A stretch of 64,000 bases of DNA from assembly GCF_024298885.1 (NCBI RefSeq), contig NZ_CP101166.1:992001-1056000 (forward strand). The letters run 5' to 3'. Source of the DNA: Haloglomus halophilum (GTDB lineage: Archaea > Halobacteriota > Halobacteria > Halobacteriales > Haloarculaceae). The position numbers and the translations under genes are program-made. Shown here piece after piece: positions 5,879 to 57,629 of the stretch (position 1 is its first letter; each line of letters starts with the position of its first letter). Below the pieces are notes generated by a model. That model did not search any database, had not been told where the DNA came from, and worked only from the letters and a program-made list of their open reading frames with translations.

Positions 5879-6394
5879 TAGAAAGCCCCCGCCCGCTCGA
5901 CCGCCCGGGAGTCGCTGTGCTCCTCACGTCGCTCCCTTCGGTCGCTCGTTGCGGTGCTTGCTTCCTCCGGGGCGGGTCGAGGCGGGCGGCCCCTTTCAGT
6001 CCCGCCCTGTTGCCCGCCGCACCGAGCGTTCGCGCGTAGTGGTTCCAGCGGAGTGCTAGTGTCCCCACACCTCCCCGCGCGGGCGCCGCGAGTGTTCCGA
6101 CACGCTCGCTCCGCTCGCGGTCTCCACGGGGATGGCGCCCGCGCGCTTCCTGGTCCCGGAACCAGCCCGCCGACCAACCGCTCTTCGGCCGGGAGCGCGT
6201 GGTGAGGCCCTCGCGGCCGAACCCGCGCGACCCGGGGAAGGGCAGGGCCACAGCGCCCGTGGAACAGCCGAATCCTGGCGGACTCGAAGGGCGAGCGCTC
6301 TCGACCCATCCCGGACGACGCAAGCACCGCAGCGACCGAAGGGAGCGAGGAGCGCAGCGAGTCCCGGATGGTCGAGAGCGTGAGGGCTTCGTAG
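5879..6394 (+). repeat. Non-coding repeat element, copy A, with long imperfect inverted ends
   Basis: This fills most of the 878-nt gap between the thioesterase and cmk. Its left arm (5879-5981) is an imperfect inverted copy of its right arm (about 6297-6394), sharing words such as GCTCCCTTCGGTCGCT and GCGGTGCTTGC. The centre is closely related to 57031-57629, for example CCCCTTTCAGTCCCGCCCTG and GGGGAAGGGCAGGG. It encodes no transposase. Open frames through it are compositional by-products of high GC. It could be a MITE-like element, a dispersed structured RNA, or both. Orientation of transcription is unknown. Confidence 0.7.
6040..6164 (+). ncRNA. Candidate structured RNA core, copy A
   Basis: An outer pair TGGTTCC (6040-6046) with GGAACCA (6158-6164) encloses an 11-bp perfect stem, GCGCGGGCGCC (6077-6087) with GGCGCCCGCGC (6134-6144), and a 46-nt apical region. 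CCCCACACCTCCCCGC precedes the stem and GCGCTTCCTG follows it; both words recur in copies B and C. Stem arms differ between copies but stay complementary. Strand is set by convention because transcription is not shown. Confidence 0.5.
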
Positions 6395-6508
6395 GTGGCT
6401 CCGTTGGAGTCGCCGTCACCGTGAGAGAGCGTGAGGGCTTCGTAGGTGGCTCCGTTGTAGTCGCTGTCACCGTGAGAGAGCGCGAGGGCTTCGTAGGTGG
6501 CTCCGTTG
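6374..6508 (+). repeat. 51-bp tandem repeat, three units
   Basis: The word GAGGGCTTCGTAGGTGG recurs at 6382, 6433 and 6484, an exact 51-bp period, in units of GAGAGCG-GAGGGCTTCGTAGGTGGCTCCGTTG plus a variable GTCGCYGTCACC part. The array abuts the right arm of element A. Element B carries two units with the same period. Fifty-one bases is 17 codons, so repeated peptides appear in antisense frames, but no start signal or conserved product supports coding. Confidence 0.8.
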
Positions 6509-6635
6509 TCGTGATCGTCGGGGCGGGCCTGTGCCAGTTCGTCGGGCCGGTCGTGCTCCAGTGCCACCCCGCCACAGGCCCGCAAACTGCCCCGGCAAGG
6601 ACAACGATTTTGAACGCCACCGACCCAGAGAGCAC

Positions 6636-7214
6636 ATGTTGATTACCATCTCCGGCCCCGCGGGCAGTGGGAAATCCACTGCCGCGGCCGGACTCGCCGA
6701 GGCGCTCGGCTACGAGCACGTCAGCGGGGGTGACATCTTCCGGGCGCTGGCCGACGAGCGCGGGATGACGCCGCTCGAGCTGAACCGGGCGGCCGAGGAG
6801 GACGACGCCATCGACCGCGATCTGGACCGCCGGCTCCGCGAGACCGCCAGCGAGCGCGACGACCTCGTCCTCGAGTCGCGGCTCGCGGGCTGGATGGCGG
6901 GCGAACACGCCGATTTCAAGATGTGGCTGAACGCGCCGCTCGCGGTCCGGGCCCAGCGCATCGCCGAGCGCGAGGACAAGGCCGTCGACCGCGCCCGCGA
7001 GGAGACCCGCGCCCGCGCCGAGTCCGAAGCCTCGCGCTACCGGGAGTACTACGGCATCGACATCGAGGACCTCTCCATCTACGACCTCGTGCTGAACACC
7101 TCCCGGCTCGACCCCGACGGCGTCGTCGGCGCGCTCCGCGCCGTCGTCGAGGCGTACACGCCCGAGGGCGACGAGGGGAAGACCCCCGTCGAGGGCATCC
7201 GCTACGAGTTCTGA
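6636..7214 (+). CDS. cmk: Cytidylate kinase (archaeal Cmk)
   Basis: A 192-residue P-loop NMP kinase that phosphorylates CMP/dCMP to the diphosphate for nucleic acid synthesis. It begins [14 protein letters not shown] with Walker A at residues 7-15, followed by the NMP-binding GGDIFRALA and the lid region [35 protein letters not shown] is the usual C-terminal signature of the archaeal CMP kinases. ATG 6636 gives the standard N-terminus, with a weak T-rich element about 28 nt upstream. It is followed one nucleotide later by truB, a common archaeal pairing, so the two are surely cotranscribed. Confidence 0.92.
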
Positions 7215-7215
7215 G

Positions 7216-8193
7216 ATGGACGACGCCGACGCGACCGTCGACATCGACCTCCGGCCCGCGCCCGACGAGCGGTCGGTCCCGGAACTGCTCGCGTTCGGCG
7301 TCTGCAACCTCGACAAGCCGCCCGGCCCCTCCGCCCACCAGGTCGCGGCGTGGACGCGCGACCTCGCCGACGACGCGCTCGCGGCCGCGGACGCCGACAC
7401 GCACGTCGACCGCGCGGCCCACGCGGGCACGCTCGACCCGAAGGTGACGGGCTGCCTGCCGCTCATGCTCGGCGACGCCACCCGCCTCGCACAGGCGTTC
7501 GACGACGCCGACAAGGAGTACGTCACCGTCCTCGAACTCCACCGCCCGGCCCCGGCAGACCTCGAGGGGACCGTCGCCGAGTTCGAGGGGCCGCTGCTCC
7601 AGAAGCCGCCGCGGAAATCGGCCGTGAGCCGGCGGCTCCGAACGCGGACGGTCCACGAACTCGACCTCCTCGAACGCGAGGACCGGCGCGCACTGTTGCG
7701 CATCGAGTGCGAGGCCGGCACCTACGTCCGGAAGCTCTGTCACGACCTCGGACTGGCGCTGGGGACGGGCGCGAACATGGGCGACCTCCGCCGGACCGCC
7801 ACCGGCACCTTCGACGACACCGACCTCGTCACGCTCCACGACTACGTCGACGCGCTGGCGGTCTGGCGCGAGGACGGCCACGAGGGCCCCATCCGCGAGG
7901 TCGTCCAGCCGGCCGAGCGGACGCTCCGGCACCTCCCGCGCGTGACGGTCGCGCCCAGTGCCGCCCAGCAGGTGGCCACCGGCGCGCCCGTCTACGCACC
8001 CGGCGTGCTGGGCATCGATCCGCCCGCGGAGGGCCCGGATGCCGGCGAGATGCCCGCGCCCGGCGACGGCGAGGACGCGCCGCTCGTGGCCGGCTACGTC
8101 CCGAGCGGCACGGCCGTCTGCCTCGGCCGACTCGTGGGGGCCCCCGACGCAGAGCGTGGCGTCGTGGTCGACCTCGAACGCGTACTCGTGTGA
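7216..8193 (+). CDS. truB: RNA-guided pseudouridine synthase (TruB/Cbf5 family)
   Basis: A 325-residue pseudouridine synthase. As archaeal Cbf5 it is expected to be the catalytic subunit of H/ACA ribonucleoproteins acting on rRNA, and to make Psi55 in tRNA. The catalytic motif HAGTLDP sits at 69-75 with Asp74 as nucleophile. CEAGTYVRKLCHDLG and GANMGDLRRTATG follow in the core, and a C-terminal PUA domain begins near residue 240. That domain contains an acidic insertion around 268-282, a halophilic trait. The start ATG is one base after the cmk stop, indicating translational coupling. Confidence 0.9.
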   Translation: MDDADATVDIDLRPAPDERSVPELLAFGVCNLDKPPGPSAHQVAAWTRDLADDALAAADADTHVDRAAHAGTLDPKVTGCLPLMLGDATRLAQAFDDADKEYVTVLELHRPAPADLEGTVAEFEGPLLQKPPRKSAVSRRLRTRTVHELDLLEREDRRALLRIECEAGTYVRKLCHDLGLALGTGANMGDLRRTATGTFDDTDLVTLHDYVDALAVWREDGHEGPIREVVQPAERTLRHLPRVTVAPSAAQQVATGAPVYAPGVLGIDPPAEGPDAGEMPAPGDGEDAPLVAGYVPSGTAVCLGRLVGAPDAERGVVVDLERVLV

Positions 8194-8269
8194 TTCTCTG
8201 TCGGATACCGAGTTTCGTCGCGAGATAGGGATGTTCGCGATGGCTGCTCGAAGTATCCGGATTATCTCT

Positions 8270-9175
8270 TCAGTCGTCGGCGGGTGCCTCCACCTCGCCC
8301 CCCTGCATCTCCACGTCGATACCGCCCAGCAGCTGCTGGTGGGGGTACGGCATGTCGATCTCCTCGGCGTCACAGCGCTCCTTGACCGCCTGGACGTACT
8401 CCGAGCGGACCTTCGCCCAGTCCGAGCGCGAGGGACTGTCGATCCAGAACCGCGACTGGATGCCGACGTACGAGTCCGCGAGTTCGGTCACGCGCGTCGA
8501 GGGCGCGGGCTCGTCGAGGATATCGTCGTGGCGCTCGGCCTCCTCGATGATGACGTCCTGCGCGTGGTCGAGGTCATCCCCGTAGCCGACACCGAACGTG
8601 AACGGGACGCGGAGCTTGTCCTTCGCGACGGGGTTGGTGATGGCCGTGTTCGCGAGCTCGGAGTTGGGGACCGTCACGAGTTCGTTGTTGAACGTCCGCA
8701 CGCGCGAGACGCGGAAGCTGATGTCCTCGATGATGCCCTTCTCGTCGTTCCACTCGACCCAGTCACCGATGCGGACCTTCGGGTCCGCGATGAGGAACAC
8801 GCCGGCGACGAGGTTGCCGATGACGTCCTGCGAGGCGAAGCCGATGGCCAGCGTCAGCGCCGCGGCGATGGTCGCCAGCGACGTGAGCAGGTCGCCGAAC
8901 CCGGCGATTGCGAACCCGACCGCGACGGCCACGAAGACGACCGCCGCGAGCGTCAGCTTCCGGGCCGGCTTCGCCAGCGTCGGCTGCACGTTGCGGGCCT
9001 TCAGCAGGCGCGTGACGACGGGGACGACGACGATGCGCCCGAGCAGGTAGAACACCACGACCGTCGCGACGAAGACGAGCAGGTCGCCGGCGAACGCGAC
9101 CCCGCCCGCGATCAGGTTGTTGAACAGCGTGTCGATGCGTTGGCCCAGTGTCTGCAGCGGCAGGACAGGGAGCAT
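8270..9175 (-). CDS. MscS-family mechanosensitive ion channel
   Basis: A 301-residue small-conductance mechanosensitive channel that releases osmolytes on hypo-osmotic shock. Three hydrophobic segments are visible (about 27-48, 70-92, 95-125). The last carries the Ala/Gly-rich pore helix ALTLAIGFASQDVIGNLVAG, followed by the beta-domain IGDWVEWNDEKGIIEDISFR and the interface RTFNNELVTVPNSELANTAI. An alpha/beta cytoplasmic vestibule domain and an acidic tail end it. Length is typical of the minimal MscS type. ATG 9175 precedes the first hydrophobic segment. It is a single gene, convergent with truB across 76 nt. Confidence 0.9.
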   Translation of the reverse strand: MLPVLPLQTLGQRIDTLFNNLIAGGVAFAGDLLVFVATVVVFYLLGRIVVVPVVTRLLKARNVQPTLAKPARKLTLAAVVFVAVAVGFAIAGFGDLLTSLATIAAALTLAIGFASQDVIGNLVAGVFLIADPKVRIGDWVEWNDEKGIIEDISFRVSRVRTFNNELVTVPNSELANTAITNPVAKDKLRVPFTFGVGYGDDLDHAQDVIIEEAERHDDILDEPAPSTRVTELADSYVGIQSRFWIDSPSRSDWAKVRSEYVQAVKERCDAEEIDMPYPHQQLLGGIDVEMQGGEVEAPADD

Positions 9176-9271
9176 ACGGGCCGGCGAACTCGGCGCGGGG
9201 CCGTAATGGTAGTGGCCCCGGCGACCGAAACGACACGCTCTTTACCCGGACCCGCATTTCCTCGGATGCAA

Positions 9272-9342
9272 GGGACCGTGGGGTAGTGGTATCCTCTGCG
9301 GATGGGGTCCGTAGGACCCGAGTTCAATTCTCGGCGGTCCCG
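9272..9342 (+). tRNA. tRNA-Pro (GGG)
   Basis: The acceptor GGGACCG pairs fully with CGGTCCC. The anticodon stem TGCGG/CCGTA holds the loop ATGGGGT, giving anticodon GGG with G37, as expected for proline. The T arm is CCGAG-TTCAATT-CTCGG and the discriminator is G. CCA is not encoded and no intron is seen. A TTTAC element about 30 nt upstream is a plausible promoter. The 3' end is duplicated just downstream. Confidence 0.93.
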
Positions 9343-9403
9343 TTCTCTCCGTTGTAGAGACGAGTCCACGAGAGACGCAGTCTCTCGGCGGTCCCGTTCT
9401 CTC
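9329..9403 (+). repeat. Direct repeat of the tRNA-Pro 3' end (att-like)
   Basis: The tRNA 3' end with its flank (9329-9349, beginning TCTCGGCGGTCCCG) is repeated exactly for 21 nt at 9383-9403. Only 33 nt lie between the copies. This is the layout left by site-specific integration at a tRNA gene, but no integrase or insert remains. Confidence 0.75.
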
Positions 9404-9439
9404 ACCTCGGACCGACGGTGCTCGTCGCTGCGCCCGTAC

Positions 9440-10051
9440 TCACTCCCGCTCCAGCACCGCGAGCAGCCCCGGAACGTCCATCGCCTGGGTCTCGAACACG
9501 GCTTCGCGACAGACCAGCTCGGTCCACCCGTCCGCGAACGCTTCCCGGACGTCCGCCGGGACCATCGGAACCGGGCCGAAATCCGTCGGCGCGTCCGGGC
9601 CGAAACCGACCAGAAACAGCCGGCCACCGGGACGGAGCACCTCGCCGACCTCCGCGGCGTACGCGGCGTGTCCCTCGGTTTCGAAAGCGTGGAACAGGCC
9701 ACTGTCGAGCACTGTCTCGAACGCCTCGCCGTCGGCATCGAGGTCGAGCGCGTTGCCGACCCGGAACCGGATATCGAGGTCACGGTCGGCCGCCCGTTCC
9801 CGCGCCCGCTCGATGCCGCGCTCGGAGATGTCGATACCGACGGCAGGATGGCCCTGCTCGGCGGCCCAGAGCGCGTGGGTCCCCGTTCCACAGCCGATGT
9901 CGAGCACCTGCCCCGAGAGCCCGTACTCCGCGACCGCATCGACGAGCGCCGGCTGCGGTTCGCCGGTGTCCCAGGGCGTCTCCTCCGATTCGTAGCGCTC
10001 GTCCCACCAGGCCGCCGGACCATCGCCGCTGGATTCGTCCTTCCCCGACAC
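9440..10051 (-). CDS. Class I SAM-dependent methyltransferase
   Basis: A 203-residue Rossmann methyltransferase. Motif I is VLDIGCGTGTHALWAA, motif II is GIDISERGIERARERA, and the post-I region continues into FETVLDSGLFHAF. The N-terminal WWDERYESEETPWDTGEPQP is characteristic of the thiopurine/tellurite-resistance-like (TPMT/TehB) methyltransferase group, so a small-molecule substrate is likelier than RNA or protein. The frame is open to a GTG at 10072, but the TATA element ATTTAC at 10077-10082 is too close to that codon. The GTG at 10051 lies 28 nt from it and is preferred. It is divergent from the DUF1330 gene. Confidence 0.75.
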   Translation of the reverse strand: MSGKDESSGDGPAAWWDERYESEETPWDTGEPQPALVDAVAEYGLSGQVLDIGCGTGTHALWAAEQGHPAVGIDISERGIERARERAADRDLDIRFRVGNALDLDADGEAFETVLDSGLFHAFETEGHAAYAAEVGEVLRPGGRLFLVGFGPDAPTDFGPVPMVPADVREAFADGWTELVCREAVFETQAMDVPGLLAVLERE

Positions 10052-10076
10052 GTCTGAGTGGGCAGCGGCCACGAGC

Positions 10077-10082
10077 GTAAAT
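10077..10082 (-). promoter_or_regulatory. TATA element deciding the methyltransferase start
   Basis: ATTTAC on the minus strand is centred 28.5 nt upstream of the GTG at 10051 but only 7 nt from the alternative GTG at 10072. It therefore favours a leaderless transcript starting at 10051. Confidence 0.5.
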
Positions 10083-10205
10083 CCCCCGACGTCGAGGGGC
10101 AGGCGCTCCGGGACCCCGAACGTCCGCGGAACCCCGTCTCGGTTCCGGAACGGTGTCCGGACGCCAGCCCACGATTTTATTCCCCCGCCGCCCGCTGACA
10201 GACCG

Positions 10206-10517
10206 ATGAGCGAGACCGAGACCGTCTACATCGTCGCACAGATCCAGGTCGAGGACTGGGACACCTACGAGTCCGAGTACATCCCGACGACGTTCGAGCG
10301 CATCACCGCCCACGACGGCGAGGTACTGGTGGCGACCGAGGAGGCCGAAGAACTCGAGGGGGAGTGGGACGGCAACTGGACGGTGGTCATCGAGTTCCCG
10401 TCCGAAGCCGACGCCTACGCGTTCATGCAGGACGAGGAGTACGTCGAGGCGATGAGTGCACGCCACGAGGCGGCCGCGTGGAACGACATCGCGATGCTCC
10501 CGGCGTTCGACGGCTGA
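10206..10517 (+). CDS. DUF1330-family small protein
   Basis: A 103-residue protein with the ferredoxin-like alpha/beta barrel pattern of DUF1330: VYIVAQIQVEDWDTYESEYIP at the start, GGEVLVAT-like HDGEVLVATEEAEELEGEW in the middle, and TVVIEFPSEADAYAFMQDEEY near the end. Such proteins form dimers; their biochemical role is not established. The ATG is 28 nt downstream of TTTTAT (10175-10180), a clean leaderless promoter. It stands alone, convergent with the surface-protein gene downstream. Confidence 0.8.
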   Translation: MSETETVYIVAQIQVEDWDTYESEYIPTTFERITAHDGEVLVATEEAEELEGEWDGNWTVVIEFPSEADAYAFMQDEEYVEAMSARHEAAAWNDIAMLPAFDG

Positions 10518-10543
10518 GACGGGGATCGGGAATCCACGGCCCG

Positions 10544-12790
10544 CTACGGGTCGCTCCCGTCCGCAGCCGGGTCGTCGATGGTGTCACTGTCGCTGTTGCC
10601 CGCGGCGTCCTCGGCGACGACCGTGAACGAGTACGCGTCCCCATACGCGCCCTCCCGATGGTACGTCTCGGTCCCGCTGTAGCCGCTGTAGGTCTGGACG
10701 AGGCTCCCGTCCCGCCGGACCTCGACGGTCACCGAGTCGAGGTCGCCGTCGGCGTCCGATACGCTCCAGGAGATCTCGAACTCGGCGTGATCCGTCGCGG
10801 CCTTGTTCTTGCAATCACCGTGTCCGGGATTGATGTCGGAGCACTCGCTGTCGTCCGTGACGCCGAACGAGTCGACGGTCGGCGCGTTGTCACCGCCGGG
10901 ACCGGGGTCCGACGCGGGGTAGTCCGCGGTCGCGGTCTCGGACTCGCCTTCGCTCGTGTCGACGGCCGTCACACTGGCCTCGTCCGGGAGGCTGTCGCAG
11001 TCGATCACGCCGGCGTCGCACGCGACCGTCGTCGTCGGGTCGGCCGTCGTCCCGTCGACGGTGCCGTCGGCGTCGAAGTCCCAGCGGTACTCGTCGACCC
11101 GGTCGGCCTCGGTGGTCCCGGCGGCGTCGAACCGGTACTCGTCGCCGTCGCTCCGCTCGGAGACGGCGAGGTTCGCGATGATGGTCCGGCCCGGGAGCGG
11201 CACCGTTCCGCGTGTGGCGCTGGCACCGTCGACCTCGATGCGGTTGACCGAGATGTGCAGGTACGTGACCGGCGGCGGGAGCGCGGTCCCCTCGGGGAAC
11301 CGTGGCTCGACGGCCCGGAGTTCGTCGCCGTACTCGAAGCTGGTCCCCTGCTGGATGCTGGCCGGACCGCCGATGATGGCGCCGTTCACCTCGCCGCTCC
11401 CCTGCCCCAGACAGGTGTCCACGTCCGTCGGACAGGCGGCGGTCGCCGAGGTGAGCCCGTACTCCCCGACGGCGTCGTTCGACCCCTCGGCGGGCTCGTC
11501 ACGCGGCGCGTAGACGGCCCCGGTGAACCCGTTGTTGCTCTGCCCCATCGCGAACTGCATCTCCGAGGTCCCGTACAGCTGGAAGCGGCTCGCGTTGCCC
11601 GACGCGACGGTCACGCCGGACTGGCCCTTCGCCATCGCGACATCACCGTTCGTGTACACCCGGGCGTAGTGGTCGGTGCCGGCGCCGTTCTCGACGGCGA
11701 TCCGCCCGTTGTCCAGCCCGATGTTGCCGTCGACGAACAGCGTGACGTTGCCCGACGAGAGGTCGAGGGTGAGCGTGTCGCCGCTGAGGCCGAACCCCTC
11801 GCTGTAGTACGACCCCGCGGTGAGCGTCGTATCGCCGTCGATGTCGGCGTCCGGGTGGTCGTCCTCGGCGTTGTCGAGGAGGACCCCGATGCCGGCGTCG
11901 AGGGCCATCCACCGGGTGTCGGTGTTCGTCGTGGTGCAGTCCGAACCGCTCCCGGCGGCACACTCGATGCTCCCGTGCTTGTCGCTCACGCTCCCCGCCG
12001 AGACGACGGCCGTATCGACGGTCTTCGGGGTCTTCACGCTGATATCGCCGTCGGCGACGAGGCCGTCGCGGTACGTCCCGTCGAGGTCGAGGCGCGCGAG
12101 GTCCGCCTCGACGGTCCGGTTGCTGTGGTGGACCGTGACCGAGACGCCGTCGATGCGGTCGCGGAAGTAGTCCGCCCAGGCGACGTAGTGGTCGCTGGTG
12201 ACGCTGACCGTGAGAACCTGCTCCCGGACGACACCCGGGCCGAGCCCCTGCCGGGACCCGGCCGCCTGGATGGTGACCTCCTCGCCCGTCCCCGACTCGC
12301 CCGGGGTGGCGGCGACGATGGGGAGCGTGAGCGTCCCCGCCCGGTAGTGGAACTCGGGCGGCGAGATCATCCGGCTCGCGTTGCCCGTGCCGCGCCAGAC
12401 GCCGCCACCCTGGTACGCGACGACCTGGTCGCTCGTCTCCCGCGTGACAGTCCCGAGTGTCTGGTTGAGGTACTCGGTCCCGTCCTGGGCCTCGACGACG
12501 ATGCGACCCGTCGCCGCCGCGGTGAGCGCACCCCCGCGACCGTTCCGGGTCAGGGGCACCGTCTGGACCTGGCTGTCACCCAGCGCGACCCGTGCCGCCT
12601 TCGCGTCGAGCTGCGTGAGCGCCGTCTCGGCCTGCCCCTGCTCGATGGACCCCTCGATGTCGTTCAGCCCGGCCGCGCCGATAACGACCACCAGCGTGAC
12701 GCCGAGCGCCGTGATGCCCAGCAACAGCGCGACGCCAAGGACCGTAGCCTGTGCTCGACGCCCGCCCCCGTCGCCCCCGGTATCCGGCAT
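10544..12790 (-). CDS. Large pilin-like surface protein (DUF7289-like) with PKD-type C-terminus
   Basis: A 748-residue exported protein. After a short basic start (GGGRRAQATVLGVALLLGIT) comes one hydrophobic helix like that of archaeal type IV pilins. ALTQLDAKAARVALGDSQVQ and SPPEFHYRAGTLTLPIV follow; both motifs recur in the protein at 43116-44789, so the two are paralogues. Residues near 560-590 (EYRWDFDADGTVDG) look like a PKD/Ig-like domain and another (WSVSDADGDLDSVTVEVRRD) follows. The ATG 12790 has TTTATTA about 24 nt upstream. It is probably surface-anchored through the N-terminal helix; its function is unknown. It is 30 kb from the pilus locus. Confidence 0.7.
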   Translation of the reverse strand: MPDTGGDGGGRRAQATVLGVALLLGITALGVTLVVVIGAAGLNDIEGSIEQGQAETALTQLDAKAARVALGDSQVQTVPLTRNGRGGALTAAATGRIVVEAQDGTEYLNQTLGTVTRETSDQVVAYQGGGVWRGTGNASRMISPPEFHYRAGTLTLPIVAATPGESGTGEEVTIQAAGSRQGLGPGVVREQVLTVSVTSDHYVAWADYFRDRIDGVSVTVHHSNRTVEADLARLDLDGTYRDGLVADGDISVKTPKTVDTAVVSAGSVSDKHGSIECAAGSGSDCTTTNTDTRWMALDAGIGVLLDNAEDDHPDADIDGDTTLTAGSYYSEGFGLSGDTLTLDLSSGNVTLFVDGNIGLDNGRIAVENGAGTDHYARVYTNGDVAMAKGQSGVTVASGNASRFQLYGTSEMQFAMGQSNNGFTGAVYAPRDEPAEGSNDAVGEYGLTSATAACPTDVDTCLGQGSGEVNGAIIGGPASIQQGTSFEYGDELRAVEPRFPEGTALPPPVTYLHISVNRIEVDGASATRGTVPLPGRTIIANLAVSERSDGDEYRFDAAGTTEADRVDEYRWDFDADGTVDGTTADPTTTVACDAGVIDCDSLPDEASVTAVDTSEGESETATADYPASDPGPGGDNAPTVDSFGVTDDSECSDINPGHGDCKNKAATDHAEFEISWSVSDADGDLDSVTVEVRRDGSLVQTYSGYSGTETYHREGAYGDAYSFTVVAEDAAGNSDSDTIDDPAADGSDP

Positions 12791-12966
12791 TGCTCGCCGT
12801 TGGACGCACGTAATAAACAGGGAATCGACCACTCCCCCCCAGGCCGTCTATATCGGGGGCTGTCATCGGTGAATGAAACGGAGGTCGTGGTGACAACGGC
12901 CGGACCGGGCGGGACCCTCCCCCACCCACCCGAACCCCTTTGTCGTCGACACCCGACCCTGCAGCC

Positions 12967-14028
12967 ATGCGTGCAGCAGTCCTGCGAGAACACGGCGAAC
13001 CACTGGACGTGACCGAGGTCGACCCCCCGGAGCCGGACCCGGACGGCGTCGTCGTCGAGATCGAGGCGTGTGGCATCTGCCGGTCGGACTGGCACGGCTG
13101 GCAGGGGGACTGGGGCTGGCTCGGCCTCGAAACGTCGCCCGGACAGATCCTCGGCCACGAGCCCGCCGGCCACGTCGTCGCCGTCGGCGAGGAGGTCGAG
13201 AAGGTCCGCGAGGGTGACCACATCGCGGTCCCGTTCAATCTCGGCGACGGCACCTGCGAGCAGTGCCGCACCGGCCACGGGAACACCTGCGACAACACCA
13301 CGCCGCTCGGCTTCGTCGAGAGCGCACCCGGCGCGTTCGCCGAACTCCTGCACGTCCCCCACGCCGACCACAACGCCGTCCACCTGCCCGAGGGCGTCTC
13401 CTCGACGGACATGGCCGGACTCGGCTGTCGGTTCATGACCGCGTTCCACGGGCTGGCCCACCAGGCGCCTGTCAGCGCGGGCGACTGGGTCGCGGTCCAC
13501 GGCTGTGGCGGCGTGGGGCTCTCGGCGGTCCACATCGCGGACGCACTCGGCGCGAACGTCGTCGCGGTCGACCTCGACGACGACAAGCTCTCGAAGGCGG
13601 CCGAACTCGGGGCGACCGAGACCCTCAACGCCGGCGAGACCGAGCGCGTTCCACGGGAGATAAAGGGTATCTCCGACGGCGGCTGCCACGTCTCCGTCGA
13701 CGCGCTCGGCATCGAGGAGACCTGCCGCAACTCCATCCTCGGGCTGGGCAAGCGCGGCACGCACGTCCAGATTGGCCTCACCACGGAGGCCGAGCAGGGC
13801 GACCTCTCCATCCCCTCGGACCTGATGGTGATGCAGGAGATCGAGTTCGTCGGCTCGCTGGGCCTGCCGCCGACGCGCTACGACGAGATCTTCCGGATGG
13901 TCGCCACCGACAAGATCACCCCGGGCGCCGTCGTCAGCGAGACCGTCGGGCTGGAGGATGTCAGCGACAAACTGGCGGCGATGACCGACTTCGAGACCGA
14001 GGGGATTCCGGTCGTCGACTCGTTCTGA
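12967..14028 (+). CDS. Zinc-dependent alcohol dehydrogenase (MDR family)
   Basis: A 353-residue medium-chain dehydrogenase/reductase that oxidises alcohols or reduces aldehydes with NAD(P). Catalytic zinc ligands are in ACGICRSDWHG (Cys37 region) and GHEPAGHVV. The structural-zinc loop is shortened to GTCEQCRTGHGNTCDN, which keeps three of the usual four cysteines. The cofactor motif VHGCGGVGLSAVHIA is followed by VVAVDLDDDKL; Asp after the second strand suggests NAD. ATG 12967 matches the family N-terminus (MRAAVLREHGEPL); an upstream ATG at 12940 would add nine residues. Physiological substrate is not evident. Confidence 0.85.
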   Translation: MRAAVLREHGEPLDVTEVDPPEPDPDGVVVEIEACGICRSDWHGWQGDWGWLGLETSPGQILGHEPAGHVVAVGEEVEKVREGDHIAVPFNLGDGTCEQCRTGHGNTCDNTTPLGFVESAPGAFAELLHVPHADHNAVHLPEGVSSTDMAGLGCRFMTAFHGLAHQAPVSAGDWVAVHGCGGVGLSAVHIADALGANVVAVDLDDDKLSKAAELGATETLNAGETERVPREIKGISDGGCHVSVDALGIEETCRNSILGLGKRGTHVQIGLTTEAEQGDLSIPSDLMVMQEIEFVGSLGLPPTRYDEIFRMVATDKITPGAVVSETVGLEDVSDKLAAMTDFETEGIPVVDSF

Positions 14029-22863: not shown

Positions 22864-22941
22864 AGTGGACTCGCGGGGGTCTCGCGAGCGGAGCGAGTGA
22901 GACCACGCGAGGGAACGAACGAAGTGAGTGGACTCGCGGGG
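22864..22941 (-). repeat. Duplicated 3' end of tRNA-Ala with hairpin between copies
   Basis: AGTGGACTCGCGGGG occurs at 22927-22941, where it covers the tRNA 3' end, and again at 22864-22878. A hairpin-like GTCTCGCGAGCGGAGCGAG and TGAGAC lie between them. The arrangement mirrors the duplication after tRNA-Pro and could be an old integration scar or processing signal. Confidence 0.6.
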
Positions 22942-23000
22942 ATTTGAACCCCGGGCCTTCCCCGTGCCAGGGGGATGATCTACCACTGATCTACGAGCCC
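22929..23000 (-). tRNA. tRNA-Ala (GGC)
   Basis: The minus strand reads GGGCTCG at the 5' end and CGAGTCC at the 3' end; the third pair is G3-U70, the alanine identity element. The anticodon stem TCCCC/GGGGA encloses CTGGCAC, giving anticodon GGC. The T arm contains GGTTCAAATCC and the discriminator is A. No intron, and CCA is not encoded. Confidence 0.95.
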
Positions 23001-23328
23001 GCGCAGTCGATTCTGAGTCCAGCCGCGGGCATAAACCCATCGTCATCCCACCGCGCGTGGCCCGGCATGGCACGCGCGGGGGCAACGGAAACCGTTTAGT
23101 CGCTGAGGAGTCCAGCACGGGTGGGAACAGCACAGCCGCATATCCGACTCGCCGCCCGTTCGGGCGGCTTGGGAGTGCGGAAGTGCAGGCCGACAGCGGC
23201 GCGTTGCCGCACCCGGCCACACGCTCGCAGCCCCTCGCGCGGTCGGCGCGCGGGCGACACCGTCCGAGGTGTCTGCCGAGGGGGCACGCGGCTCGTGCGG
23301 TTCCAATCACACAGCTACGAGTATACAC
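23001..23328 (+). other. Long non-coding leader region upstream of rpsO
   Basis: There is no credible gene in 328 nt. The stretch holds CGGAAACCGTTTAGTC near 23088-23103, shaped like a BRE/TATA pair. Downstream are a UUCG-type hairpin CCGCCC-GTTC-GGGCGG near 23152-23167 and a second hairpin GCGGC-GCGTT-GCCGC. A structured 5' leader for the ribosomal operon, or a separate small RNA, is possible; neither is proven. Confidence 0.4.
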
Positions 23329-30412: not shown

Positions 30413-30436
30413 TCAGCCGGAAGCGACGGCCGGCCC

Positions 30437-30553
30437 ATTCCACCACAGGAAGCGCCCGCTCGCCCCATCAGGCGGAGCCGGCGCGTCAGCGCCGTGCGGA
30501 GCCACGCCGGCGAGCGGGCGGGGAGGTGTGGGGGTACCCTGCTCGGCTGGAAC
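30437..30553 (-). ncRNA. Candidate structured RNA core, copy C (minus strand)
   Basis: This is a third, core-only copy in the 250-nt gap before prs. On the minus strand it reads TTCCA, then CCCCACACCTCCCCGC, stem GCCCGCTCGCC, a 44-nt apical region, stem GGCGAGCGGGC, GCGCTTCCTG and TGGAA. Stem arms are at 30509-30519 and 30454-30464. Three stem positions differ from copies A and B, each with a compensating change. The words CTACGAAGCCCTC just outside (near 30568-30580) echo the element ends. The long inverted arms are absent. Confidence 0.5.
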
Positions 30554-30662
30554 GACCACGAGCGACCGAGGGCTTCGTAGCCAACCTCGCCGCCATCCCC
30601 GACCTCGCTGCAAACGCCTGCCGACGGAAACGCTTGTTACCCTGCACGAGGGAGCCGCAGTC

Positions 30663-49601: not shown

Positions 49602-49662
49602 CCCAGTACCTCCAGTGAACGCACGATGGCTGACGGTTCGGGGCGACTGTACAAGTACCTCA

Positions 49663-50409: not shown

Positions 50410-50416
50410 GCTGGCC

Positions 50417-52453: not shown

Positions 52454-54918
52454 TCCTCGTCACCCTCGTTCTCGTCGTCCTCCTTGTCGAAGGCGAAGCC
52501 GCCGAAGTCGACATCGTCGGCCGCGCCGCCGTCGGCGGCGGCGGGCTCACCGGGATCGGCGTTCACGTCGAGAGCGGAGGCGAGGTCGCTCGACCCCTGG
52601 CCGCGGTACTCCGTGAGCAGGTCCTCGGCGTTGTCGAGGACCTCGGCCGTCTCCTCGAGCATCTCCTCGCCGGCGTCCGGCCGGGGGACCATCTCCTCCT
52701 TCTCCGGGTCGATGTCGATCTCGACGGACTCCATCTCGCGGAGGTCCTCGAGGGACTTCTCCAGCCGGTCGCCCGCCAGCAGCCCCATGATGGTGTCGGG
52801 GTCGTTCATGAACGCCTGCAGGCTCGCCGCGACCTGCGTGTACGTGTTGAGGCCGTTCTCGATGAGGTAGGCGAGGACGACCTTCCGCTTGAAGATCTCC
52901 GTCTGCATGCGGTCCTGGGTCCAGCCACGGTCGAACATGATCTCCTCGAGGGTGTTGGACTCGCCCATCTGGAGGTAGGTGTCCGTCTCGGCCTGCCACT
53001 GGTAGACGTCCTGGACGTTGATCTCGTCGTTCTCCGGGTCGTAGTGGTTGATCTCGGTGAGCGACTTGTTCCGGCGGACCTTGCGCCCGCGCACACGGGT
53101 CTGGGTCTGGATGGACACGAGGTCCAGCGCCGTGAACATCGTCTTCGAGACGTTGATGGGTTCGGTCGTGAACCGCTTGATGACCTCGCCGACGGAGTCG
53201 GCGTGGAACGTCGTCAGCGTCGTGTGCCCCGTCGACATGACCTGGAACAGCGTCCGGCCCTCCTCACCACGGATCTCACCCATGACGATGTACTCGGGCC
53301 GCTGTCGGAGTGCCGCTTCGAGGAGGTCGAACTCGTCGACGTCACCCTTGTCGCCCTCGCTGAACGAGGGGCGGGTGACGGATGCGATCCAGTTGCGCTG
53401 GGGCAACTCGACCTCGCGCGTGTCCTCGATGGAGACGATCTTCGCCTTCGACGGGATGAACAGGCTCACCGCGTTCAGGGAGGTCGTCTTCCCCGATGCC
53501 GTACCACCGGCGAAGATGAGCGACTTGTGGTTCTCGATGCAGAGCCACAGGAACGCCATCTCGTCGAGCGAGAAGGTGTTCCAGTTGATGAGGTCGACCG
53601 GCGTGAACGGGACGTCCTTGAACTGCCGGATGGTGTAGTTGGTCCCGTGGTCGGAGACCTCCTTGCCCAGCGTGAGCTGGGCACGCGAGCCGTCCGGCAG
53701 CGTCGCGTCCACCTGCGGCGAGCGCTTCGAGATACCCTTCCCGGACCGCTGGGCCAGCTTGACGACGAAGTCGTCGAGCTCCTCCTTCCCGTGGTAGACG
53801 TTGGAGATGAGCTGCTCGTAGTCCGAGTGGTAGACGAAGACGGGCGAGTTGTAGCCGTCGACGGAGATGTCCTCGACGTTGATGTCGTGTTTGATGCCGT
53901 CGATGCGCTCGAAGCCGATGAAGTCCCGCTTCAGCAGGTAGAGGATCTTGTCTATCTGGTAGCCGTTGAGCGTCTCGGCGTCCTCCTCGATGACGGCGTG
54001 TTCGGGTCGGACCGTGACCTCTCGGGCCGGGACGAGCGCCGCGTCCTCGCTGCCGCCGCCACCGCCCATCCCAAGTGCGTCCTTGACCCTGGACATCACG
54101 TCGCCACCGCCACCGTCACCGCCACCGTCACCGTCACCGTCACCGCCATCGCCGTCACCGCCGTGGCTGCGGCGGGCGTCGCGGGCGCCCTCGGCGTAGA
54201 GGTCGTAGCGCTCCAGGAGGTTCTCGGTCTCCTTCTCGATGACGTTCGCACGGGCGTCCTCGTTGCCCTCGACGATGACGTCGTCGCTGGAGTACTTGAT
54301 GGCGGTCTTCAGTTTCGAGGAGAGGAACTCCCGCAGGTCCGCCTCGATTGGCGTCAGATGCGGCTCGATGAGGTAGTACTTCTTCTCGTTCTCCTTCTCG
54401 GAGTGGAAGATGATGACGAACGCGTACGGCTTGTTCACCCAGTAGCGGTCGACCTCGCGGAAGTGGGTCTTCTTCGACAGGGGTACGGCCTTCTCGAGGT
54501 CGTAGCGCGTGACGATGGTCGTGGAGCCGTCCGGTTCGCTGAAGAAGGCGTCCTCGTCGAGCTCCTCGTTGACGCTGACGGTCCGGTCCTCGACGATGTC
54601 CGCGAGGACATCCCCCACGTCCCCGGCCATCGCCAGTTGGCCCTCCGTCCGCTCGGGGTCGAAGCCGAGATGCTCTGCGGGGTCGAACTCGACCCGCTGG
54701 CCGTTGCTGTCCGTCGGCGGGTTGCCGGCCTCGTCGTAGTAGTACTCCTCCTTGAACGCGTCCCAGTCGTACGTGCCGGCGACCACGGACGACCCTCCCG
54801 TTTCGACGTCGGCGCTATCGGCGCCGTCCGCGCGAGACGCCTCGGACGCCTCGCTGTCGTCGACGGCGACCTCCCCCGCCTCCTCCGCGTCGCCGCCGTC
54901 TGCCTCGTCGATAGCCAT
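52450..54918 (-). CDS. Type II/IV secretion system ATPase (PilB/GspE-like)
   Basis: An 822-residue hexameric motor. The first 300 residues are acidic, with a Gly/Asp linker at 54110-54170 (GDGDGGGDGGGGD). The N2/ATPase core follows: Walker A GGTASGKTT (471-479), Asp box IVSIEDTREVELPQRNWIAS, Walker B YIVMGEIRGEEGRTLFQVMS and His box STGHTTLTTFHADS. The tail is acidic. ATP hydrolysis powers pilin insertion through the PilC-like protein. The first gene of an eight-gene operon, it starts at ATG 54918, 29 nt after a strong TATA. Internal RKVRRNK lies near the clamp. Confidence 0.92.
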   Translation of the reverse strand: MAIDEADGGDAEEAGEVAVDDSEASEASRADGADSADVETGGSSVVAGTYDWDAFKEEYYYDEAGNPPTDSNGQRVEFDPAEHLGFDPERTEGQLAMAGDVGDVLADIVEDRTVSVNEELDEDAFFSEPDGSTTIVTRYDLEKAVPLSKKTHFREVDRYWVNKPYAFVIIFHSEKENEKKYYLIEPHLTPIEADLREFLSSKLKTAIKYSSDDVIVEGNEDARANVIEKETENLLERYDLYAEGARDARRSHGGDGDGGDGDGDGGGDGGGGDVMSRVKDALGMGGGGGSEDAALVPAREVTVRPEHAVIEEDAETLNGYQIDKILYLLKRDFIGFERIDGIKHDINVEDISVDGYNSPVFVYHSDYEQLISNVYHGKEELDDFVVKLAQRSGKGISKRSPQVDATLPDGSRAQLTLGKEVSDHGTNYTIRQFKDVPFTPVDLINWNTFSLDEMAFLWLCIENHKSLIFAGGTASGKTTSLNAVSLFIPSKAKIVSIEDTREVELPQRNWIASVTRPSFSEGDKGDVDEFDLLEAALRQRPEYIVMGEIRGEEGRTLFQVMSTGHTTLTTFHADSVGEVIKRFTTEPINVSKTMFTALDLVSIQTQTRVRGRKVRRNKSLTEINHYDPENDEINVQDVYQWQAETDTYLQMGESNTLEEIMFDRGWTQDRMQTEIFKRKVVLAYLIENGLNTYTQVAASLQAFMNDPDTIMGLLAGDRLEKSLEDLREMESVEIDIDPEKEEMVPRPDAGEEMLEETAEVLDNAEDLLTEYRGQGSSDLASALDVNADPGEPAAADGGAADDVDFGGFAFDKEDDENEGDEE

Positions 54919-54942
54919 TGAACAAGGGGTTGGTCCGAGTAG

Positions 54943-54952
54943 GGATATAAAT
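54943..54952 (-). promoter_or_regulatory. Strong TATA element for the pilus operon
   Basis: ATTTATATCC on the minus strand is centred 29 nt before ATG 54918, one of the best TATA matches in the window. It should drive a leaderless transcript covering the whole eight-gene unit down to 44844. Confidence 0.7.
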
Positions 54953-55150
54953 TACGCCCACCTTAACTTCCCAGGGACCACCCTATAGAGGCATTTAGGG
55001 CCGTTCTACCGGGAATTCAGTTCCCGTCGCTGGCCCGGGGAGACCCGGATTATTTAACTGCTGTTCCGCCGTGCTACCGGTCGCCATTCCTGCCGGTCAC
55101 GGCCGTCTCCCACGCTCTCGGAACCCGGCTGGCTCCCCGGTCGCCCCGGG

Positions 55151-56389
55151 TCAGTCGGCATCCTCGACGAACCGCTCCAGTCGGTCCATCGCCGCCTTCA
55201 GGTCGTCCAATCCGGTCGCGTACGACGCGCGGAGATGACCGTCGCCGCCGGCTCCGAACGCGTCGCCCGGGACCATCGCCACCGACTCGGCCTCCAGCAG
55301 GTCCTCGGCGAACGTCTCCGCGTCCGTCCACGGGTCGGGGACCTCGGGGAAGACGTAGAACGCGCCGGTCGCCTCGAAGCAACTCACCCCCATCTCTTCG
55401 AACCGCGAGAGGACGAACTGCCGGCGCCGGTCGTACTGCCGGCGCATCTCGGCCACCTCGTCCGCACAGGAGTCCAGCGCTTCGATAGCCGCGTACTGGG
55501 CCGTCGTCGGCGCCGACAGCATCGCGTACTGGTGGATCCGGTTGATGGCCTCGATGGCGCCGGCCGGCCCCATCGCGTACCCGAGCCGCAGCCCCGTCAT
55601 CGCGTACGCCTTCGAGAAGCCGTTGAACACGACCGTCCGCTCGCGCATCCCCGGCAGCGCGGCGATGCTGGCGTGGTCACCTTCGTAGGTGAGGTCGGCG
55701 TAGATCTCGTCGGAGAGCACGCCGATGTCGTGGCGCTTGCAGAACTCCGCGACCGGCGCCAGCTCCTCGACCGACATGGTCGCTCCGGTCGGGTTGTTCG
55801 GGAAGCAGTAGACCAGCAGGTCGGCGTCCTCGGCGCCCGCGTCGCGCAGCACGTCGGGAGTCAATTTGAACTCGTCCGCGGCACGCGTCGGCACCGGCAG
55901 CACCTCGCCGCCCGCGAACCGCACCCCCGGCTCGTAGGAGACGTAACACGGCTGGGCGACCGCCACCGTATCGCCGGGGTCGACCAGCGCCCGGAACGCC
56001 GCGTCGATGGCCTCGCTCGCCCCCGCCGTGACGATGACCTCCTCGTCGGCGTCGTACGAGAGGTCCCACCGCTCGGCGTCGGCGGCGATGCGCTCGCGCA
56101 GTTCACGCATCCCCCGGTTCGCGGTGTAGGAGGTCTGCCCGCGCTCCAGCGAGGCGATGGCCGCCTCCCGGGCGTTCCACGGCGCGGTGAAGTCGGGCTC
56201 GCCCACACCCAGCGAGATGACGTCGTCCATCTCCTCGGCGAGTTCGAAGAACCGGCGGATGCCCGAGGGGGGCGTGTTCTGCACCCGCTGGGACGGGACG
56301 AGCGGCCCGTCCCCGTCGCCCTGTTCGCTCCCGTCGGCCCGCTCGTCCCCGTTCTCGCCCTCGGATTCGGTGTCGGAGTCCAGGCTCAT
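55151..56389 (-). CDS. PLP-dependent class I/II aminotransferase
   Basis: A 412-residue fold-type I aminotransferase, probably for aromatic or aspartate substrates. GVGEPDFTAPWNARE, YTANRGMRELRERIA and YCFPNNPTGATMSVEEL are present, followed by DEIYADLTY (Asp for the pyridine nitrogen) and NGFSKAYAMTGLRLGY containing the PLP lysine. The N-terminal 30 residues are an acidic extension. Its ATG overlaps the stop of the Lrp-type regulator gene (ATGA), so the regulator and enzyme are coupled; in haloarchaea such pairs control amino acid turnover. Confidence 0.88.
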   Translation of the reverse strand: MSLDSDTESEGENGDERADGSEQGDGDGPLVPSQRVQNTPPSGIRRFFELAEEMDDVISLGVGEPDFTAPWNAREAAIASLERGQTSYTANRGMRELRERIAADAERWDLSYDADEEVIVTAGASEAIDAAFRALVDPGDTVAVAQPCYVSYEPGVRFAGGEVLPVPTRAADEFKLTPDVLRDAGAEDADLLVYCFPNNPTGATMSVEELAPVAEFCKRHDIGVLSDEIYADLTYEGDHASIAALPGMRERTVVFNGFSKAYAMTGLRLGYAMGPAGAIEAINRIHQYAMLSAPTTAQYAAIEALDSCADEVAEMRRQYDRRRQFVLSRFEEMGVSCFEATGAFYVFPEVPDPWTDAETFAEDLLEAESVAMVPGDAFGAGGDGHLRASYATGLDDLKAAMDRLERFVEDAD

Positions 56390-56934
56390 GGCGTCACGGA
56401 GAGCCGGTCGTCGTCGCCGGTCTCCTCGAAGCGGTGGCCCGCCTCCTTGTACGTGTCCATCACGTAGTGGGTCACCGTCTGCGTGATCTCCGGGACGGGT
56501 GCGACCTTCTCGCTGATGAAGCGCGACACCTTGCTCATCGACTCCTCCTCGACCTCCAGAGCGAAGTCGTAGTTGCCGCTGACCAGCCGGAGCGCCTGCA
56601 CCTCGGGGAACTGCGCCAGCCGGTCGGCGATGTCCTCGTAGCCGGTCTCGCGGTCCAGCTCCACGTTCAGCTCGACCAGCGCGTGGACGTGCTCGGCCTG
56701 GGTGACGGACTCGGCCCGCTCCCAGTCCACGACCGCGGCGTACCCCTGGACGACGCCCGACGCTTCGAGGTCGGCGATGACGTCCTCTACCTCGGCGGCG
56801 TCGAGCCCGGTCATCCGTGCGAGGTCATCGGTGCTGTAGCGGGCGTTCTCGCACAGCAGGTCGAGGAGTTCGGCGCGGGCCTCGGTCTCGTCCTGGCCGC
56901 CGTCGGCCGCGGCGTCGTCCGACTGGTCGCTCAT
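56386..56934 (-). CDS. Lrp/AsnC-family transcriptional regulator
   Basis: A 182-residue regulator. Winged HTH: LLDLLCENARYSTDDLARMT, then LDAAEVEDVIADLEASGVVQ and GYAAVVDW. C-terminal RAM/ligand domain: ALVELNVELDRETGYEDIAD, ALRLVSGNYDFALEVEEES and VSRFISEKVAPVPEI. It likely senses an amino acid and regulates the coupled aminotransferase. TTTAG is centred 26 nt before ATG 56934. The region before it is occupied by repeat element B. Confidence 0.9.
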   Translation of the reverse strand: MSDQSDDAAADGGQDETEARAELLDLLCENARYSTDDLARMTGLDAAEVEDVIADLEASGVVQGYAAVVDWERAESVTQAEHVHALVELNVELDRETGYEDIADRLAQFPEVQALRLVSGNYDFALEVEEESMSKVSRFISEKVAPVPEITQTVTHYVMDTYKEAGHRFEETGDDDRLSVTP

Positions 56935-57030
56935 ACCTCGTTGGGGGTGCAGGGCGGACTAAACGCTTGCGAGTGCGTGCTAGGTGTAGGCGTGGAGGGT
57001 GGAACCGATACCGGCCGCGACGGAACCGTG

Positions 57031-57629
57031 TAGAAAGCCCCCGCTCGCTCGACTTCCGTCAGAGCAAGCTCTGACGACTTCTCGCTCGCTTCGCTCGCGA
57101 GAACGTCCGGGACTCGCTGTGCTCCTCACTCGCTCCGCTCGTTGCGGTGCTTGCGTCGTCCGGGATGGGTCGAGCGATTTCTCGGCTTCGCCGAGAAATG
57201 TATAGCTGGCGGCGAAGCCGCCAGCCGAGCGGCCCCTTTCAGTCCCGCCCTGTAGCTGGTTGCACCGAGCATTCGTGGGTAGTGGTTCCAGCGGGGTGCT
57301 CGTGCCCCCACACCTCCCCGCGCGAGCGCCGGATTTGGCTCCGGCACGCTCGCTCGTGCTCGCGGCCTCCGCCGTGTGGCGCTCGCGCGCTTCCTGGTGG
57401 CGGAACCGGCCGGCCGAGCAACCGCTCTCGGGCCGGGAGCGCGTGCCGAGGCCCGGACGGGCCGAGTGCCGCGCGACTCGGGGAAGGGCAGGGTCACAGC
57501 GCCCACTCCACGAACAGCGTTCCTGGCGGACTCGAAGGTGAGCCGAACGGAGTGAGGCGAACGTCGAGAGACGAGCGAAGCGAGCGCGCGCAGCGAGTCG
57601 CAACCGGTCGAGAGCGCGAGGGCTTCGTA
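57031..57629 (+). repeat. Non-coding repeat element, copy B
   Basis: This occupies most of the 823-nt gap between the Lrp gene and the HPP/USP gene. Starting TAGAAAGCCCCCGC and ending GAGGGCTTCGTA, it is homologous with 5879-6394 along its length in the same orientation. Two extra hairpins (CTCGGCTTCGCCGAG near 57181 and GGCGGCGAAGCCGCC near 57209) are inserted in its left part. Its left arm matches the right arm of copy A (inverted) better than its own right arm. No encoded protein. Confidence 0.7.
57283..57408 (+). ncRNA. Candidate structured RNA core, copy B
   Basis: Stem GCGCGAGCGCC (57320-57330) pairs with GGCGCTCGCGC (57378-57388) around a 47-nt apical region. The outer GGTTCC (57284-57289) pairs with GGAACC (57402-57407). 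The fixed words CCCCACACCTCCCCGC and GCGCTTCCTG flank the stem. Relative to copy A, a G-C pair in the stem is A-T here. Confidence 0.5.

What the first reader, a model, noticed from the sequence alone, without database searches (positions are those of the whole stretch)
5879..57629. Repeated structured RNA candidate with covarying stem (three copies)
Three intergenic regions share CCCCACACCTCCCCGC, an 11-bp stem, GCGCTTCCTG and an outer TTCC/GGAA pair in the same order. Arms are GCGCGGGCGCC/GGCGCCCGCGC in A (6077/6134), GCGCGAGCGCC/GGCGCTCGCGC in B (57320/57378) and GCCCGCTCGCC/GGCGAGCGGGC in C (30519/30454, minus strand). Three stem positions change between copies and every change is compensated. 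Apical regions are 44-47 nt in all. Compensated change in three loci points to selection on base pairing, i.e. an RNA or a cruciform DNA element. I do not recognise it as SRP RNA, RNase P RNA or an rRNA fragment.
Basis: partly seen in the sequence, partly recalled or inferred. Interest (0 to 1): 0.85.

Follow-up and report, generated by a model that had tools for sequence, protein, structure and literature searches.

The report
Haloarchaeal folded intergenic repeat elements
The three covarying hairpins are real and are one replaceable part of a large non-coding repeat that occurs dozens of times in some genomes of salt-loving archaea, with folded arms conserved in shape rather than in stem sequence, probably a mobile element rather than an ordinary RNA gene.

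Summary
The hairpin ("K") has 39 matches in its own Haloglomus genome. Copies A and B are composite elements of about 510 and 595 bp: left arm, K, a second domain, inverted right arm. C is a bare K.

A model built only from other genera finds both arms of A (E 6e-16, 1e-15). The arm-foot 18-mer is in 176 of 342 genomes of the order (57 of 90 genera; reversed control 0). Elements there are three-armed palindromes with terminal inverted repeats.

Arm covariation is strong: 97.0% standard pairs against 73.7% shuffled. Wobble is strand-specific: of 78 mismatched cells in 126 arm stems, 41 are G.U-type on the strand reading outward, 8 on the other, 29 neither. So a single strand probably folds.

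The RNA-gene reading is partly supported: no Rfam match, no consistent gene context, uneven copy number, and stems differing at 9 of 26 shared sites. My reading: a non-autonomous, mobile or formerly mobile element, REPIN-like in build but failing two REP features tested. No transcription data were available and no transposase was searched for.

The parts
5881..6391 (.). Composite element A: left arm (type a), K, X domain, inverted right arm (type b)
   Evidence: Ends read; model R2 hits on both arms; R1 hit on K
5875..6006 (-). Left arm of A, outward sense on the minus strand
   Evidence: R2, built from non-Haloglomus genomes only, E 1.1e-15, full length
6035..6165 (+). K cassette of A: GGTTCC/GGAACC outer pair, conserved CCCCACACCTCCCCGC and GCTTCCTG, 12-bp stem, variable apex
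   Evidence: R1 E 1.5e-26 (A is among the sequences R1 was built from)
6076..6087 (+). 5' arm of the A stem
   Evidence: I5
6134..6145 (+). 3' arm of the A stem
   Evidence: I5
6166..6260 (+). X domain of A (..GGCCGGGAGCGCGTGG..GCGCGACCCGGGGAAGGGCAGGG..CACAGCGCCC), limits approximate
   Evidence: Similar string in B and in other copies shown (its output was cut); inverted in elements shown; read by eye
6276..6397 (+). Right arm of A, outward sense on the plus strand
   Evidence: R2 E 5.9e-16, full length
6374..6526 (+). Three tandem 51-nt repeats starting at the right end of A
   Evidence: D1; more than one terminal repeat unit at 7 of 40 loci of other genera
57033..57627 (.). Composite element B: left arm with nested hairpins, K, X, inverted right arm
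   Evidence: part of the left arm by R2 57101-57171 (-) E 2.3e-8 (57207-57249 only E 0.48); right arm read by eye only, no R2 hit at E<=1
57278..57409 (+). K cassette of B
   Evidence: R1 E 5.8e-22 (B is among the sequences R1 was built from)
30434..30560 (-). K cassette C, without complete arms; an arm-end remnant (TACGAAGCCCTCG) lies beside it
   Evidence: R1 E 2.6e-16 (C is among the sequences R1 was built from); remnant seen

Best explanation
The hairpins are K cassettes carried in the middle of a family of non-coding, intergenic, palindromic elements found across the order Halobacteriales. A full element has terminal inverted repeats (ACAGCCAGAAAGCCCC...GGGGCTTTCTGGCTGT in many copies of other genera), two inverted arms (87 of 126 arms span 80-111 nt between anchors: a 12-bp stem of almost free sequence, conserved internal loops, a variable apex), and a middle stem that in Haloglomus is often filled with K plus an X or Y domain; one-armed and reduced forms also occur. 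Shown: modular anatomy, spread, covariation, strand-specific wobble in the arms, differing cassettes at syntenic sites. Inferred: the elements are non-autonomous and are or were mobile. A host or transposon protein recognises each arm as a folded single strand on the strand that reads outward, so shape and not stem sequence is kept. Because the two arms are inverted, each strand of the element carries one arm in its working form, as in REPINs. Hairpin cassettes are exchanged between copies by recombination and small hairpins insert at the apices, which makes the mosaic and lets stems change as units.
For: Own genome: 39 K matches. Placement of 38 of 39 G000 loci: tandem 20, convergent 10, divergent 8; K strand same/opposite to tandem genes 10/10; none inside a called gene. 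R2, with no Haloglomus sequence, finds A's arms in outward sense. Spread of the 18-mer: 176 of 342 genomes, 57 of 90 genera, reversed control 0 in the rows shown. Uneven arm-foot counts (17-mer) within genera: g19 60 against 0; g22 38 against 0; g20 113 against 1. Covariation score 0.567 against 0.151 shuffled and at most 0.071 slid. Wobble: 126 non-Haloglomus stems, outward G.U-type 41, opposite 8, other 29, p 2e-6; distinct stems 39 against 8; on A2 helix 2 GU 21, AC 1; Haloglomus end modules 24 against 10 over the first ten pairs, p 0.02. One element folds into an outer stem and three arms, z -10.9. Same site, different stem: for example L003/L046, L004/L049, L029/L207, L016/L186. Site of B: full element in G000, a reduced two-end form in G002, K in reverse orientation without arms in G003, flanks separated in G001.
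Against: No clean empty site was found. No target duplication above chance: 19 of 40 elements have a flanking repeat of 4 or more, against about 18 shuffled; one 8-nt repeat against 0.14 expected; a crude test. No element with a transposase gene between its arms was seen in the loci read, and whether these genomes encode a suitable enzyme was not searched. 26 of 39 G000 copies are at shared sites with G002, so most copies are old, and at 17 of those 26 the stem is unchanged. The exact 18-mer is absent from viral contigs and one element had no match in phage records, though plasmids of many haloarchaeal genera carry arms. For K alone the wobble asymmetry is not significant (A.C 18, G.T 9, p 0.12). 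A strand-specific mutation bias could mimic wobble tolerance. Many arms are related, so p-values are guides.
Confidence: 0.55

Rival explanations
1. Each arm, and K, is a transcribed structured RNA; the element is a pair of divergent RNA genes, or a bidirectional RNA element of which any read-through transcript shows one arm in its working form.
For: Strand-specific wobble, conserved internal loops that look purine-rich on the outward strand (by eye), very strong covariation; among one-armed elements in tandem gaps the arm points with the genes 21 times and against them 11 times (p 0.11). A halite metatranscriptome paper (PMC7002113, passages read) reports 22 conserved intergenic RNAs of Halobacteria without known function; I could not check whether any is this element.
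Against: No Rfam family at threshold. Context is inconsistent: by gap length, Haloglomus K elements are mildly enriched in convergent gaps (28 of 107 against 18%, p 0.04) and depleted in divergent ones (26 of 107 against 37%, p 0.005), while other genera show depletion in convergent gaps (7 of 94 against 18%, p 0.007, from a baseline of only 75 gaps) and none in divergent ones. 61 of 146 family genomes lack the exact arm foot. No conserved TATA-like box was noticed inside the elements (by eye, not tested).
Confidence: 0.25
2. Pure DNA palindromes kept perfect by template switching and gene conversion, with no single-strand recognition; compensation is a mutational by-product.
For: In K the variable stem pairs swap between Watson-Crick types with few wobble cells (G.T 9, A.C 18 of 1296); stems differ as blocks at some syntenic sites; an apex repeat is expanded into a tandem array of about 900 bases in L238.
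Against: Does not predict the 41 to 8 strand asymmetry, nor conserved unpaired loops that stay imperfect beside perfect stems.
Confidence: 0.12
3. PATE-type degenerate IS605 elements (as in Haloquadratum), moved by a Y1 transposase.
For: Haloarchaeal, non-coding, palindromes near the ends, a terminal-only form (site of B in G002), small hairpins inside the palindromes; compare the passages of PMC3119063.
Against: Those PATEs are defined as lacking terminal inverted repeats; these elements have them. Similarity to IS605 ends was not tested.
Confidence: 0.08

Closest known systems
REPIN / BIME (inverted REP pairs with RAYT transposases, bacteria; from passages of PMC3733652, abstracts in the listings, and recall)
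   Same: Inverted pair of strand-defined hairpins with variable interior, intergenic, many copies, mosaic combinations
   Different: Arms mostly 80-111 nt instead of 20-40; no GTAG or CGTC tag at the foot; archaeal; no RAYT shown
SMR and PATE elements of Haloquadratum walsbyi (PMC3119063, passages read)
   Same: Haloarchaeal, transposase-free, palindromic; SMRs have inverted ends and no target duplication; nested insertions into palindromes; terminal-only deletions
   Different: SMR-A about 110 bp and highly conserved between copies; PATEs lack terminal inverted repeats; the passages read describe neither three arms nor order-wide conserved arm feet
MITEs
   Same: Short, non-coding, terminal inverted repeats, multicopy
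   Different: No target duplication above chance; ends not linked to a transposase here
Rfam structured RNA families
   Same: Conserved loops with covarying stems
   Different: No family matched the element at threshold

Membership tests
REP/REPIN | GTAG or CGTC tetranucleotide at the hairpin foot (per PMC3733652) | tested here: not met
   Conserved arm feet in A2 are GGGACTGAAAGGGGC and GGGGCTTTCTGG
REP/REPIN | Palindromic unit of about 20-40 bp | tested here: not met
   126 arms are 44-325 nt between anchors, 87 of them 80-111
REP/REPIN | Units in inverted pairs | tested here: met
   one-armed forms also exist
REP/REPIN | Associated RAYT (Y1 tyrosine transposase) | not tested
MITE | Terminal inverted repeats | tested here: met
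   ACAGCCAGAAAGCCCC/GGGGCTTTCTGGCTGT in many copies; pairing beyond GAAAG above independence at positions 0, 1 and 3 in 42 two-ended elements
MITE | Target-site duplication | tested here: not met
   19 of 40 with a flanking repeat of 4 or more against about 18 shuffled (crude test)
MITE | Ends shared with an autonomous transposon | not tested
   -
PATE | No terminal inverted repeat | tested here: not met
PATE | Near-terminal palindromes related to IS605 ends | tested here: inconclusive
   Palindromes present; IS605 similarity not tested
SMR-A | Inverted ends without target duplication | tested here: met
SMR-A | About 110 bp, highly similar copies | tested here: not met
   38 of 40 two-armed elements are 220-490 bp; 117 distinct stem pairs in 126 arms
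Rfam families | Score at or above a family's gathering threshold | tested here: not met

The most novel reading that the evidence does not exclude
A new order-wide class of haloarchaeal elements whose arms are structured RNAs (outward transcripts from each element), kept by shape with almost free stem sequence, perhaps the RNA part of an unknown ribonucleoprotein that also moves or exchanges the hairpin cassettes.
Probability: 0.18. Interest if true: 0.88.

Novelty: new variant of a known kind. Interest (0 to 1): 0.68.

Why it matters
About half the genomes sampled in the order carry the exact arm foot (176 of 342), with up to 113 feet in one genome, and 26 of the 30 plasmid matches listed lie where that collection's (incomplete) gene table has nothing. 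The arms are hypervariable in sequence yet almost perfectly paired (117 distinct stem pairs in 126 arms), and their strand-specific wobble makes it possible to ask directly whether RNA or single-stranded DNA is the working form. If mobile, they are a large archaeal counterpart of bacterial REPINs with an unknown mover; if RNA, a new large RNA class in a major archaeal group.

Tried and rejected
Considered and rejected: cis-regulatory leader or 3' element (no consistent gene context; the unweighted comparison looked strong, 3 of 59 convergent against 18 of 64, p 7e-4, but length-weighting reduced it and Haloglomus shows the opposite trend). A Haloglomus-only family, first suggested and by the single hit, was rejected after the arm feet were found elsewhere. 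K is not strictly Haloglomus-only: two divergent K copies in G018 and G026. Two exact 16-mer hits in G052 did not carry the rest of K in my parse and were set aside. Target duplication: none above chance. Empty sites: three flank searches gave a reduced form, a site of which only one flank could be placed, and a shared site with an expanded apex; no clean empty site. Literature: eight searches; only looked for the sequences themselves, and its two hits are unrelated by title; I saw no description of the element in the listings or in the passages read. Subscription papers are not covered. I read passages only of PMC3119063, PMC12306157, PMC3733652 and PMC7002113.

Dropped rows: the K stem count used 108 of 119 parsed copies; 11 with fewer than 9 of 12 Watson-Crick pairs (insertions or misparse) were dropped. 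A1 used 39 of the 52 loci then held: 40 passed my length filter and I left out L037, whose apex is truncated. Arm stems had to show at least 8 of 12 (126 other-genus arms) or 9 of 12 (143 Haloglomus modules) Watson-Crick pairs to enter. A2 used 61 of 126 arms (76-112 nt, type I motif). In one search all twelve positions give G.T 13, A.C 41, other 109, but the last two are partly out of register; over the first ten, by my sum, 10 and 24. In one search, 94 of 111 loci could be placed. Genes were called by my own codon-score script trained on the window, not by an annotation.
Full report
Observation. The conserved 16-mer is exact at the three places given, and the stem of copy A is a perfect 12-bp inverted repeat. 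In the window alone the 16-mer with up to 3 mismatches is not remarkable (4 found, 2.4 expected). In the whole genome it is: 24 exact and 10 one-mismatch copies against none for the reversed pattern. A covariance model from 39 copies (R1) finds 39 copies in the own genome at E<=0.01 and the three window copies, which are part of its training set. RNAalifold gives 13 of 27 pairs with compensated double changes; one pair of the main stem shows G-C 20, U-A 9, C-G 8 and A-U 1. The genus name rests on one named hit, Haloglomus irregulare, together with the high copy numbers in the same-genus genomes G000-G002.

Anatomy. Reading the flanks of the copies (output partly cut) shows that K is usually the middle of a composite element. 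At its sides lie arms of one of two types (a: GAAAGCCCC...CCCCTTTCAGTCCC; b: CGAAGCCC...CCCTTCGAGTCC); where both arms were read they are inverted to each other. Some copies, such as C, lack one or both arms. Between K and the right arm lies a domain X or an alternative domain Y. Other elements in the same genome have other interiors, for example X'-Y without K, or a short domain. Arm feet number 38 for type a and 74 for type b at up to 3 mismatches (reversed controls 0 and 2). Copy A is left a, K, X, right b; copy B the same with nested hairpins in its left arm.

Wider family. The 17-mer CCCCTTTCAGTCCCRCC occurs in 85 of 146 genomes of the family and 20 of 22 genera, reversed control 0 in the rows shown. 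The 18-mer with a leading G occurs in 176 of 342 genomes of the order and 57 of 90 genera, control likewise 0. In many copies of other genera the element reads ACAGCCAGAAAGCCCC, arm, GCCCCTTTCAGTCCCACC, a middle of about 40 nt, then the mirror image; elsewhere the outermost bases differ but still pair. One such element folds into an outer stem and three arms at -168.5 kcal/mol, z -10.9. Element A folds with z -10.0 and -10.5 on its two strands, mostly arm against arm. I aligned 61 arms from other genera in outward sense (A2) and built R2. With no Haloglomus sequence in it, R2 finds both arms of A in full (E 5.9e-16 on plus, 1.1e-15 on minus) and part of B's left arm (2.3e-8). It does not find B's right arm at E<=1, so that arm rests on reading alone. 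Arms also lie on plasmids: 34 records of many haloarchaeal genera matched one element, none over 80% of the query; 26 of the 30 listed have no annotated feature under the match, in a gene table that is incomplete. The exact 18-mer was not found in viral contigs and one element had no match in phage records. In five plasmid neighbourhoods read, no common neighbour gene was seen; one has an IS5 transposase nearby.

Covariation. On A2, 97.0% of 1935 cells form standard pairs (shuffled 73.7), 421 cells change on both sides (shuffled 124), 20 pairs have such a change (shuffled 17.9), and the covariation score is 0.567 (shuffled 0.151; partners slid by 1-3 columns at most 0.071). The shuffles do not correct for relatedness; the slid versions keep relatedness but are disfavoured because the structure was derived from this alignment.

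Which strand. In a palindrome without a working strand, G.T and A.C mismatches should be equally common. In 126 distinct arms outside Haloglomus the orientation GAAAG...CTTTCAGTCC has 8 G.T, 41 A.C and 29 other mismatched cells of 1512 (p 2e-6; distinct stems 8 against 39, p 5.5e-6), so G.U-type pairs lie on the opposite strand, the one that reads from the middle outward. Fourteen of the 41 are at one stem position. The direction is the same in the sub-samples: f17 4 against 8, other f1 genera 3 against 12, the rest 1 against 21 together. On A2 the long helix has GU 21, AC 1 in outward sense, and the alifold energy is -53.5 outward against -47.2 inward; over all 32 pairs the counts are 52 and 17, 12 of the 17 at one predicted pair (37/108) that is probably not real. 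In Haloglomus end modules the first ten pairs give 10 against 24 in the same direction (p 0.02). For K they are 9 against 18 over 108 stems, not significant (p 0.12). Many arms are related, so the p-values are guides. The simplest reading is that each arm acts as a folded single strand, and that the two arms of one element use opposite strands. A mutation bias tied to the element's own strand would also fit.

Gene context. Of 39 G000 loci 38 could be placed: 20 tandem, 10 convergent, 8 divergent; in tandem gaps the K strand agrees with the genes 10 times and opposes them 10 times; none lies inside a called gene. In G001 and G002 together 69 were placed: 33, 18, 18 (one more at an edge, 71 given); 15 against 18. 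Weighted by gap length, Haloglomus elements are slightly enriched in convergent gaps (28 of 107 against 18%) and depleted in divergent ones (26 of 107 against 37%), while elements of other genera are depleted in convergent gaps (7 of 94 against 18%) and not in divergent ones. One-armed elements in tandem gaps point with the genes 21 times and against them 11 times (p 0.11). These trends disagree or are weak, so I see no cis-regulatory placement.

Change over time. Of 39 G000 copies 26 have a K at the matching site in G002 and 13 in G001 among the loci held (one of the 13 matches on one flank only). The 5' stem arm is the same at 17 and different at 9 of the 26, and the same at 6, different at 6 and unread at 1 of the 13; the loop can differ even where the stem does not. 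At the site of B, G002 has a reduced two-end form, G003 a K in reverse orientation without arms, and in G001 the two flanks lie apart. At another site a loop repeat has grown into a tandem array of about 900 bases in G002. More than one terminal repeat unit was found at 7 of 40 loci of other genera and at the right end of A. Arm-foot counts differ from none or one to dozens between members of one genus. I found no target duplication above chance and no clean empty site.

Verdict. I read it as an order-wide, non-autonomous, palindromic mosaic element with strand-specific folded arms, working like a REPIN but not a member of the REP families as defined. That it moves, and what recognises it, are inferences. 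That it is undescribed is claimed only for the searches and passages listed under Tried and rejected.

Noticed in passing
window 23121-23186 (+): Rfam match to the S15-Halobacteria ribosomal protein leader (E 1.7e-17), with a tRNA at 22929-23000 (-).
   Followed up: no
L238 2819-3716: In G002 the arm apex of one element is expanded to a tandem array of short repeats (CTCACTCGCTTCGCTC / CTCACTCGCTGCGCTC) of about 900 bases, 52 matches of the motif.
   Followed up: partly
window about 57054-57106; L001, L013, L021, L024, L031, L035, L045, L047 (K apices); L002, L282, L292, L304 (arms): Several recurring smaller hairpins and hairpin pairs (for example GTCAGAGCAAGCTCTGAC, CGTTCGAGAGAGC..CTCTCGTGATCACGAAA.., CGTCGTCGGGCTACGCCCGACTGCAAGCGGG) sit inside K and arm apices; some recur in different genera. 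By eye they look like separate small mobile hairpins, compare SMR-A.
   Followed up: no
L291, L302, L303 (other genera); window 6374-6526: Tandem 45- to 51-nt repeats at element ends, made of the terminal repeat plus about 30 nt that is nearly constant within a locus but differs between loci.
   Followed up: partly
L251, L254, L255, L262, L285, L339, L345, L347, L349, L350, L351, L355, L356: A second arm type with a core like CAGCGACCCCTATCC...GGATATGTCGCTG in place of GCAAGCACCGCA...GAGGAGCGCAGCGAG.
   Followed up: no
L137: An arm plus X' element that ends about 40 nt before the start of a gene that looks like the wyosine-synthesis enzyme TYW1 (named from recall of its sequence, not searched).
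   Followed up: no
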